Below, piece by piece: positions 35,781 through 38,700 of a stretch of DNA of 64,000 nt (the first letter of the stretch is position 1; every line of letters starts with the position of its first letter). The stretch is from Branchiostoma floridae. Its lineage: Eukaryota; Chordata; Leptocardii; Amphioxiformes; Branchiostomatidae. The stretch is from the NCBI RefSeq assembly GCF_000003815.2, contig NC_049990.1, positions 5,010,251 through 5,074,250 on the forward strand. The letters are read 5' to 3'. A model generated the notes under the pieces. The model searched no databases and had not been told where the DNA came from. It saw only the letters and a program-made list of their open reading frames with translations. The translations under genes and the position numbers were made by a program.

Positions 35781-38700
35781 TTAGAAGAGGAAGCTGTCTT
35801 CATTCAAGTCTTCTCCGCTGCCCTCTCCGCTCCCATCTGCGTAAAAATACAGCATCATATTGATAGGTTTATTGCAATACATTCTTCAAGGCAAGTGCGG
35901 TAACATAGATATGATTATAAAACTAGAAATATTTAATAACTATTTACTATTACAGTTTACTACATTCCATAACATATTTCTAAATAGATTTGTTAGATTT
36001 GGCTTCTTCTTTTCATAAATGATCATGAATGTGACTGCTCCTAAAATATGTTCACTGATTTCCTTGGTTCTAAGAGTAGAATCATCCTGTCATGGGCAAG
36101 ACTAGTGGCAAAGTACTTCAAGGTAATTTGAACACGTCGGTAGATAGCAACAATCACATAGCTGTTCTGAGAGGTGGATACCTCCGTCATGCTTTACTTC
36201 CAAATGATATGTATTACTCATTATATTAACGTTCGTTCGCCTTTATCCGCGGGGTAACCTATATCCGTTGTGCTGCTAAACAGGGTATCCAGGGATATCA
36301 AGTCGATGGACGGTAGTTTCAAATTGTGATATTTTCAAAATATTGCAGTTTCAAACCACCATCTTTTGATTTGATATCCTAAATACATTGTTCTTTAAAA
36401 GAACGGATAAAGGTTACGCTACAGATAAAGGTGAACTAGTGTTAGAAGTACGTTCTCTATGTTCAGTTTCCTGATAAAGGTAGTTCTCATGAGCTGTAAG
36501 AAACGTACCAGGCTTCGTGGTGGTTTCCACTGGTTTCGCGGTAGTGGCGGTAGTGACTGGCAGATCAATGCTGTACTCAAACCGGAAGCCCTGCTCCTCG
36601 ACGCTTCCGTCAGACTGGAACTTGATTCTGACGTCATTGTCGGTGAACAGACGCGGCGGCATGTCGGTACCACAGTACGTGCCTGGAACATATAAAGGAG
36701 CGTAAGCATATGAGGGCGCCAATCGTATGGAACTCAAAGTTGTACCATTTATTTATTCGTTTGGCTGTCATTACAGGAAGCCAAAGTCGCCCAACTTTTG
36801 CCTATGTACAACATTTGCCTACTAATCTTTTGTAACGTTTACTTAGCCTCCATAGCAAGCTCTCGGGGCTTTTTGTTTGCTCATACGATATACTTTTTTG
36901 GGGCTAATTCAGCGTTATACTGTTGGCTTCTTTGTGTTCTGGTTTGTTTGTGGCAGTCATCAGTGAAAAGTTATTATTTGCCAAAAAAACGGCAAAGACA
37001 ACTTGCTCTGGAGGCTTAAGGTGCCCTCTCACTGCACTTACGTCAAGCTTGCGTCACTGTGAGGTTCGTTCACTGCGTCACTGTTTTGTTATATTCTCCG
37101 ATTTTGTATATTTTAGATATTGCGTGATACGTAAAAGTATGACTTAGAAGACGACAAAATACACAAAAAGTAAGAAATTCGTTAATAATCTCTGAAATTC
37201 GTTGAGTATCGTTCTAACACCGCAGTGACGCAAGCTTGACGCAAGTGCAGTGAGAATGCACCTTAACGTTTACCTACCAATCTTTGTCCGTCCGTCGTAG
37301 ATCTCGACAAAGTCATAAGGGCAGCCGGAGAAGAAGCCGCCATCTTCCAGCGCGAAGTCGGTGAAAGTCAGGGAGATGGTGTGGCCACTACCGTGGATAG
37401 TCCACGTGCAGTCCGCGTCGCTCTGGTAGCTGTTCGGATAGCTGTGTAGAAATAGCCAAGTATTCAGAATCTACATAAGTCTACATAAGATATTACATAA
37501 GTCACTCCCATTTTGCAAAGTCAGTGGTAACAAAAGTCCAATTGAAATCGCAGCGACGCCGTCAACGTGTAAACCACATACCTACTATGGTCACATTTCC
37601 AAACCGGGGCCAGGCCGGGATGTTTGCGGAATCGAAAAATGAAAGCGTTTTTTAAGGAATAAACACAAATTACTGTAAATATATTTAATTTCGCGGGAAT
37701 TTAATTACGCGGTAGCGAGAAAAATGACTTTTCGCGGTGGTTTTAAGTTCGCGGTAGCACCATGCACTGTAGTCTCTTACTGCTATGGAAAAATGTTCGA
37801 GGTGGTTTTAAATTCGCGCTGAAGTGGCCATCGCGAAAACCGCGAACATTAATCCACCGCGAACATTTCTGCATTCACAGTATGCCCAAGACTATTTTTT
37901 CACGTTTTAGGTGTTTCGTTCTTTCTTTATATCATAATTTTCGTTCCTGAAAACTGTCCGTTCGGACTGCAGTTTGGAAATTTGACCGCAGCATACGTGA
38001 TTGAAATGAAAGTGGGAAAAGAAGCTCACCCTGGCGATGTGACCACGCCATAGCTGTCTTGCAGGTGGGATCCGCAAGGGCCGCCGCCGGCCAGTCCATG
38101 GATGACGCTGTAAGAGAATTGGAACCCAGGTCCGCTGATGAGCTCGTCCGTCACGAAGTGGATGTGGACGTCCTGGGTAGCCGTGATGGCGGGGGGCATG
38201 TCCGTTCCACAATAGTATCCTATTGGTCAACATTTAACATACGTCATAACGACAATCATAATATTTTGAAGTCTCTCGTCGCTGTAGACCTATCCCATTT
38301 CTGACACCATGTTACGTCGCTGATTGTAGGTTCGTCTGCGTGTTCAAGAGCACATTTGATTTGTAGTTTTGATTCTTTAAGCCCAGATCTCTCAGATGAC
38401 TATGGACTTATAGATACATGTTACGTTCTGAAACAGGGCTGCACTGGCGACCCAACAGACGACAAAGAAAGCGAGGAAGACCAAAACATCTGCTACAGAT
38501 AAAAGGGGGTTGTCTTTCCCCCTATCAACTGGGGATTAGTCTGAAGTAGAAAATCTGACCCAAAATCACCCTGAATGGAGGCTTACTGTCTAAATGTGTC
38601 ACTAGACACGGGAGGATCTAAGTCTAAGTCTTAGGCCTTCCGTGAGTTTCGTCTGGGTACGGGTTAGTATGGGTCTGAACATTTACGTGTGGTAGCAGAA

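What the first reader, a model, noticed from the sequence alone, without database searches (positions are those of the whole stretch)
35781..35836. Conserved Ser-Gly acidic tail: possible glycosaminoglycan attachment in small CUB proteins
The last exons of the three genes code for [31 protein letters not shown] and [18 protein letters not shown] and SGDG next to acidic residues fit the xylosyltransferase consensus SGxG, and the Phe-(Leu/Ile)-Phe end is retained in all three although the linkers have diverged. Inferred: these could be small secreted proteoglycans in which two CUB domains present a glycosaminoglycan chain, a combination I do not know as described.
Basis: partly seen in the sequence, partly recalled or inferred. 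Interest (0 to 1): 0.72.

Follow-up and report, generated by a model that had tools for sequence, protein, structure and literature searches.

The report
Tandem two-CUB proteins, predicted sugar-chain tail
Three neighbouring genes in an animal genome encode small, apparently secreted proteins made of two CUB domains and a conserved acidic Ser-Gly tail that looks like an attachment site for a long sugar chain, so they may be small proteoglycans; the chain itself is a prediction.

Summary
Three minus-strand tandem genes (A 39519-35781, B 45359-40931, C 56090-47859) each have seven exons with the same intron phases and encode 281-286 aa: a signal-peptide-like start, two CUB domains, a Thr/Pro/Lys linker and a tail on its own last exon. 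GSG[ED]GSG[ED]D occurs three times in the window's six frames and in none of 40 shuffles; its DNA pattern (AGY serines, no mismatch) has exactly three matches in the 513-Mb genome, all here. Against C, synonymous sites are near saturation, yet the tail keeps its residues better than the linker. Five of six serines fit the E/D-G/A-S-G attachment motif (motif). The genome has xylosyltransferase-domain exons. FAM20C phosphorylation (Glu at +2) fits 3 of 6 serines, none in C. Glycosaminoglycan attachment is therefore the best reading (0.65), with features that could favour heparan sulfate. No modification is shown and no orthologue was seen. The 'new combination' claim needs trimming: neuropilin-1 already joins two CUB domains and a glycosaminoglycan. 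What looks new is the minimal two-CUB architecture with a one-exon C-terminal tag.

The parts
35781..35836 (-). Gene A exon 7: tail [18 protein letters not shown] and stop; the finding itself
35781..39519 (-). Gene A coding span, 286 aa; exons 39519-39474, 39226-39087, 38796-38706, 38219-38030, 37441-37278, 36682-36509, 35836-35781; intron phases 1,0,1,2,1,1
   Evidence: two CUB stretches, Pfam PF00431 E 2.9e-49
36509..36682 (-). Gene A exon 6: end of CUB2 and linker [16 protein letters not shown]
35703..35708 (-). Gene A polyadenylation signal AATAAA, 73 nt after the stop
39578..39584 (-). TATATAA, first base 65 nt before the start codon of gene A
40931..40971 (-). Gene B exon 7: tail EGSGEGSGDDFIF and stop
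40931..45359 (-). Gene B coding span, 281 aa; exons 45359-45311, 44327-44185, 43775-43685, 43274-43085, 42591-42431, 41875-41705, 40971-40931; same phases
   Evidence: two CUB stretches, Pfam E 2e-47
40812..40817 (-). Gene B polyadenylation signal AATAAA, 114 nt after the stop
45415..45421 (-). TATATAT, first base 62 nt before the start codon of gene B
47859..47902 (-). Gene C exon 7: tail [14 protein letters not shown] and stop
47859..56090 (-). Gene C coding span, 281 aa; exons 56090-56045, 55365-55229, 53917-53818, 51147-50964, 49739-49576, 48751-48581, 47902-47859; same phases
   Evidence: two CUB stretches, Pfam E 4.5e-51
47713..47718 (-). Gene C polyadenylation signal AATAAA, 141 nt after the stop

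Best explanation
The three genes are tandem duplicates of a small secreted two-CUB protein whose last exon is a C-terminal glycosaminoglycan attachment tag. Proposed steps: (1) the signal peptide sends the protein into the secretory pathway (inferred from sequence by eye); (2) the two CUB domains fold as a calcium-type tandem CUB-CUB module like those of PCPE-1 and neuropilin (domain identity shown by profile and sequence match, calcium use inferred); (3) the Thr/Pro/Lys linker holds the tail away from the fold (inferred); (4) xylosyltransferase adds xylose to one or both serines of GSG[ED]GSG, and a chain is built (inferred); (5) the tandem Ser-Gly pair with acidic and aromatic residues on its C-terminal side could also make the tail a substrate for heparan sulfate initiation, most of all in A (inferred from published enzyme work); (6) the secreted protein then acts as a diffusible adaptor: the CUB pair binds a protein ligand and the chain tethers or concentrates the complex in the matrix or at cell surfaces (speculative). 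Steps 4 to 6 have no direct evidence here.
For: Gene models with 18 of 18 GT-AG introns, shared phases, stops and AATAAA. Two CUB stretches in each protein. Tail DNA pattern only in these three exons of the genome, reversed control 0. No GSG[ED]GSG in any frame of 28 stretches around other CUB matches plus one flank; 7 of the 8 short loci lie inside the 20 longer ones, and a gene's last exon may lie outside a stretch. Constraint: in the tail A-C and B-C differ at 7 of 8.2 and 7 of 7.7 synonymous sites but 4 of 33.8 and 4 of 31.3 nonsynonymous sites; the linker differs at 15 of 36.7 and 16.3 of 38.7 nonsynonymous sites. One-sided Fisher, tail below linker: P = 0.023, 0.006, 0.007 for AB, AC, BC, uncorrected. 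In a neutral simulation at 1.4 and at 2.0 substitutions per site, 0 of 20,000 runs each kept 7 of the 9 core residues; observed 8, 7, 8 of 9. Five of six serines fit E/D-G/A-S-G (motif). Two adjacent xylosyltransferase-domain matches in this genome, E 1.4e-21 and 3.7e-17. Acidic residues C-terminal of Ser-Gly favour EXTL3, and a second Ser-Gly raised its efficiency 5.2-fold in syndecan-4 (passages).
Against: No expression, protein or glycan data. No orthologue from another species was examined, so conservation rests on three paralogues and 13 to 18 codons. The first serine of C has Ala, not Asp/Glu, at -2. The tail is not clearly more constrained than CUB2: P = 0.17, 0.04, 0.05 for AB, AC, BC; CUB1 was not tested this way. 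At 0.5 substitutions per site, the A-B value in CUB1, 1.4% of neutral runs kept 7 of 9 residues, so A-B alone is weak. Motif matches over-predict. For heparan sulfate: the same enzyme paper notes that sites not modified with heparan sulfate (CSPG4, decorin) also have acidic residues and that chondroitin is the default. In human urine the acidic residues of chondroitin sites were mostly N-terminal of the serine, so the acidic C-terminal side here is not a typical chondroitin feature. EXT-family enzymes of this genome were neither found nor excluded: the PF09258 search did not complete.
Confidence: 0.65

Rival explanations
1. The tail is a phosphorylated acidic segment: the Golgi kinase FAM20C phosphorylates the serines (S-x-E), giving a calcium- or mineral-binding or sorting tail rather than a proteoglycan.
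For: Acidic context and serines outside the CUB domains; A has two S-G-E and B one. About 20% of human FAM20C phosphosites lack Glu at +2 (78-80% have it), so S-G-D sites are not fully excluded.
Against: The paper's discussion calls Glu at +2 a strict requirement. Only 3 of 6 serines have it and C has none (both S-G-D), while Ser-Gly with acidic neighbours is kept in all three.
Confidence: 0.12
2. The tail is unmodified and works as a peptide: an acidic flexible stalk ending in a Phe-Leu/Ile-Phe motif that binds a partner or directs sorting into granules.
For: The F-[LI]-F end is kept in all three although 5 (A), 0 (B) and 1 (C) residues separate it from the core.
Against: Does not explain why the exact GSGxGSG register is kept; a spacer would tolerate other residues (inference). 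No search for a partner of such an end was made.
Confidence: 0.15
3. The tail is an inherited low-complexity end without function, alike only because the genes are tandem duplicates, perhaps with gene conversion.
For: A and B look partly homogenised: exon 4 is 87% identical between A and B against 61-80% for the other six exons of that pair.
Against: Against C, most synonymous sites of the tail have changed while 10-11 of 13-14 aligned residues are kept, and the neighbouring linker is not kept. Exon 7 of C is 75% and 71% identical to A and B, no sign of recent conversion.
Confidence: 0.08

Closest known systems
Neuropilin-1 (CUB a1/a2, part-time proteoglycan)
   Same: Tandem CUB pair matches over nearly the whole CUB-CUB length (chain 7m0r_E: E 5.2e-26 with A; 6.5e-31 with C); carries chondroitin or heparan sulfate at Ser612 (PMC6387129, passages).
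   Different: Neuropilin-1 has two FV/VIII domains, a MAM domain and a membrane anchor; Pfam finds only CUB-type families here and the predicted site is at the very C-terminus.
[quoted passage not shown]
   Same: Secreted tandem CUB protein; aligned over both CUB domains in one stretch (6fzv_D, E 1.7e-27 with A); binds heparin, and heparan sulfate could scaffold its complex (PMC6829435, passages).
   Different: PCPE-1 binds glycosaminoglycans in trans, mainly through its NTR domain; no NTR domain is found here, and the chain would be carried covalently.
Caenorhabditis elegans chondroitin proteoglycans (CPGs)
   Same: Core proteins recognised by chondroitin attachment with the motif E/D-G/A-S-G (PMC8418075, section 7); five of six serines here fit.
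   Different: There the chain was seen by mass spectrometry; here it is predicted. No core name in the paper's tables is a two-CUB protein as far as the names tell; domain content is not given.
Cubilin
   Same: Best match in the Protein Data Bank by sequence (3kq4_B, E 1.5e-60 with A; 4.4e-54 with C).
   Different: The matched chain has several CUB repeats that add up in the score; not the same architecture.

Membership tests
Proteoglycan core protein | Covalently attached glycosaminoglycan chain | not testable with these tools
   Needs biochemistry or mass spectrometry
Proteoglycan core protein | Ser-Gly with nearby acidic residues in an unstructured region | tested here: met
   Two Ser-Gly per tail with acidic neighbours, outside the CUB matches; disorder inferred from composition, not computed
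Proteoglycan core protein | Enters the secretory pathway | tested here: inconclusive
   Hydrophobic N-termini ending in small residues look like signal peptides by eye; no signal peptide program was run
Proteoglycan core protein | The organism has xylosyltransferase | tested here: met
   PF12529 matches at two adjacent places on contig C13, both over the cut-off; activity not shown
C. elegans type chondroitin site E/D-G/A-S-G | Motif at each serine | tested here: inconclusive
   5 of 6 serines; the first serine of C reads A-G-S-G
[quoted passage not shown]
   Features present, longest acidic run in A; no predictor or enzyme assay, and acidic residues also occur at sites without heparan sulfate
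CUB domain protein | Pfam CUB over the cut-off, twice | tested here: met
   166.4, 160.5, 172.2 bits against 21.4, two stretches each
Neuropilin | FV/VIII and MAM domains besides two CUB | tested here: not met
   Only CUB-type families found at E up to 0.001
PCPE | NTR domain after two CUB | tested here: not met
   Only CUB-type families found at E up to 0.001
FAM20C substrate | Glu at +2 of the serine | tested here: not met
   3 of the 6 Ser-Gly serines, none in C

The most novel reading that the evidence does not exclude
The last exon is a portable glycosaminoglycan tag: a 13-18 residue C-terminal cassette entered through a phase-1 intron, in which tandem Ser-Gly starts chains and the conserved acidic plus Phe-Leu/Ile-Phe end is read by the chain-initiating enzymes to steer towards heparan sulfate, turning a plain two-CUB binder into a diffusible heparan sulfate carrier.
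Probability: 0.18. Interest if true: 0.65.

Novelty: new variant of a known kind. Interest (0 to 1): 0.42.

Why it matters
Invertebrate proteoglycan cores are reported from only a few species, and fewer than 80 human core proteins carrying chondroitin sulfate were known when PMC8418075 was written (section 7). If true, this would be a small tandem family of secreted proteoglycans with a simple ligand-binding module, and a minimal natural construct for testing how tandem Ser-Gly, acidic and aromatic C-terminal residues affect chain choice, because A, B and C vary in those residues.

Tried and rejected
Rejected: coincidence of SGxG (the longer pattern is restricted to these exons); a fourth copy or pseudogene of the family in the window (tblastn at E up to 10 gave 11 hits outside the 21 exons, best E 1.0); a neuropilin or PCPE orthologue (missing domains); FAM20C as the full explanation. 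A nematode cuticle review holding both CUB and chondroitin proteoglycans in its text was checked: in the 12 of 16 passages shown, the CUB hits were journal DOIs.

Led nowhere: the genome search with protein A for further paralogues did not complete; the EXT/EXTL family search (PF09258) did not complete. A paper search for amphioxus with heparan sulfate, proteoglycan and xylosyltransferase gave 0 papers; one for amphioxus with CUB domain gave 19 papers, seen as a listing only. The viral, metagenome, prokaryote, phage, plasmid and E. coli collections were not searched, as unlikely to hold animal orthologues.

Limits of the statistics: Nei-Gojobori counts on short stretches; Fisher P values use rounded counts, are uncorrected, and the three pairs are not independent. 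The neutral simulation starts from the tail of A and uses equal base rates.

Full report
What is there. The finding lies in the last exon of a minus-strand gene (A). Reading the region by splice sites gave three complete genes of seven exons each (A and B, C). All 18 introns follow GT-AG, and the phases after exons 1-6 are 1,0,1,2,1,1 in all three. Lengths are 286, 281 and 281 aa. Each starts with a hydrophobic stretch ending AFANG, AVASG or AIANA, which I read as a signal peptide by eye. Pfam finds two CUB stretches in each (166.4, 160.5 and 172.2 bits for the protein against a cut-off of 21.4) and, at E up to 0.001, no other family except PF23061, a CUB subfamily model that passes its own cut-off only in C. 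AATAAA follows the stops by 73, 114 and 141 nt. TATATAA or TATATAT lies 65 and 62 nt before the start codons of A and B; for C the scan found its only hit 170 nt before the start. The cluster sits between open frames of a filamin-like gene (minus strand) and an SLC3A-like gene (plus strand). The window is G000:C12:5010251-5074250 of a 513-Mb assembly in 431 contigs. No call names the organism; amphioxus (Branchiostoma) is my inference from genome size and gene content.

Is the tail more than chance? GSG[ED]GSG[ED]D occurs 3 times in the 127,996 six-frame residues of the window and 0 times in each of 40 order-1 Markov shuffles. SGxG alone is common (42 observed, shuffle mean 22.2, maximum 32). 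In the whole genome the degenerate DNA pattern for the nine core residues has exactly three matches, all in this cluster, and its reversed control has none. GSG[ED]GSG was not found in any frame of 20 stretches of 10 kb around CUB matches, 8 short CUB loci (7 of them inside those stretches) and one flank. These are a sample, mostly from the top, of the 150 scored CUB places (969 candidates), and a last exon may lie outside a stretch.

Is it under selection? A and B are closer (98 of 121 and 75 of 109 residues identical in CUB1 and CUB2) than either is to C (51-56%). Against C, synonymous differences are near saturation. In the tail, 7 of 8.2 (A-C) and 7 of 7.7 (B-C) synonymous sites differ but only 4 of 33.8 and 4 of 31.3 nonsynonymous sites; in the linker 15 of 36.7 and 16.3 of 38.7 nonsynonymous sites differ. 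One-sided Fisher tests for the tail being lower than the linker give 0.023 (AB), 0.006 (AC) and 0.007 (BC); against CUB2 0.17, 0.04 and 0.05. A neutral simulation kept at least 7 of 9 core residues in 1.4% of runs at 0.5 substitutions per site, 0.04% at 0.9, and in none of 20,000 at 1.4 or at 2.0. So the tail is constrained at least about as strongly as CUB2, and more than the linker beside it. The F-[LI]-F end is kept although 5, 0 and 1 residues separate it from the core in A, B and C.

What it most likely does. A paper on chondroitin core proteins gives the C. elegans motif E/D-G/A-S-G and warns that motifs alone are ambiguous (PMC8418075, section 7; sections 4 and 5 also read). Five of the six serines fit; the first of C has Ala at -2. 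[quoted passage not shown] It also says that sites without heparan sulfate, such as CSPG4 and decorin, have acidic residues too, and that chondroitin sulfate is the default. The tails have tandem Ser-Gly, then acidic residues and Phe, with the longest acidic run in A. This makes heparan sulfate possible, not certain. A human urine study (PMC10424144, passages) ties acidic motifs to higher chondroitin sulfation and finds the acidic residues mostly N-terminal of the serine. The genome has two adjacent matches to the xylosyltransferase C-terminal domain, both over the cut-off. I did not get an answer on EXT-family enzymes.

The CUB pair. By sequence the nearest solved structures with A are cubilin (1.5e-60), PCPE-1 (1.7e-27), neuropilin-2 (3e-27) and neuropilin-1 (5.2e-26); with C the order is cubilin, neuropilin-2, PCPE-1, neuropilin-1. 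In the A alignment the Asp of CNFDYVE, CPYDFVE, FVTDE and FQSDG pair with Asp of PCPE-1. PCPE-1 has a calcium site in each CUB domain in its crystal structure (PMC6829435, passages). That these Asp are calcium ligands is recalled, not tested. A ligand-binding role for the pair is inferred from these relatives.

Rivals. FAM20C is said to require Glu at +2, which 78-80% of its human phosphosites have (PMC12650399, passages). Three of the six Ser-Gly serines have it and C has none, so it is unlikely to be the shared reason for conservation. An unmodified peptide ligand explains F-[LI]-F but not the kept Ser-Gly register. Inherited junk is contradicted by the contrast between synonymous and nonsynonymous change against C, although A and B may have exchanged sequence (exon 4 87% identical).

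Novelty. Neuropilin-1 carries two CUB domains and a glycosaminoglycan at Ser612 (PMC6387129, passages), so the general combination is known. Searches for CUB domain with proteoglycan, glycosaminoglycan attachment and invertebrate (0 papers) and CUB domain with chondroitin, core protein and Ser-Gly (0 papers) found nothing; they cover an open-licence library and need all terms in one text, so they do not show absence from print. A protein of only two CUB domains with a C-terminal one-exon attachment tag, in three tandem copies and with a tail pattern found nowhere else in the genome, is a new variant of a known kind if the chain is real.

None of these required a change of odds.

Noticed in passing
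window 38030-38219 and 43085-43274: Exon 4 of A and B is 87% identical at the DNA level while their other exons are 61-80%: possible gene conversion.
   Followed up: partly
window 1250-25455 (minus strand): Of seven open frames tested, two match the filamin repeat (PF00630) over the cut-off, three below it and two not at all: probably a filamin-like gene.
   Followed up: partly
window 60017-61839 (plus strand): Open frames matching SLC3A2_N and alpha-amylase domains: an SLC3A-like amino acid transporter heavy chain.
   Followed up: partly
window 31531-31675: Perfect 24-nt inverted repeats 97 nt apart, like a miniature transposable element; the inner part 31582-31642 is 80% alike to 41563-41623 in intron 6 of gene B.
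   Followed up: partly
window 34525-34612, 37683-37884, 49199-49388: Dispersed repeat rich in TTCGCGGTGG and CGCGAACATT, with copies inside introns of A and C.
   Followed up: no
window 30447-31100: Two diverged direct copies (77-84% alike) about 450 nt apart, unidentified.
   Followed up: no
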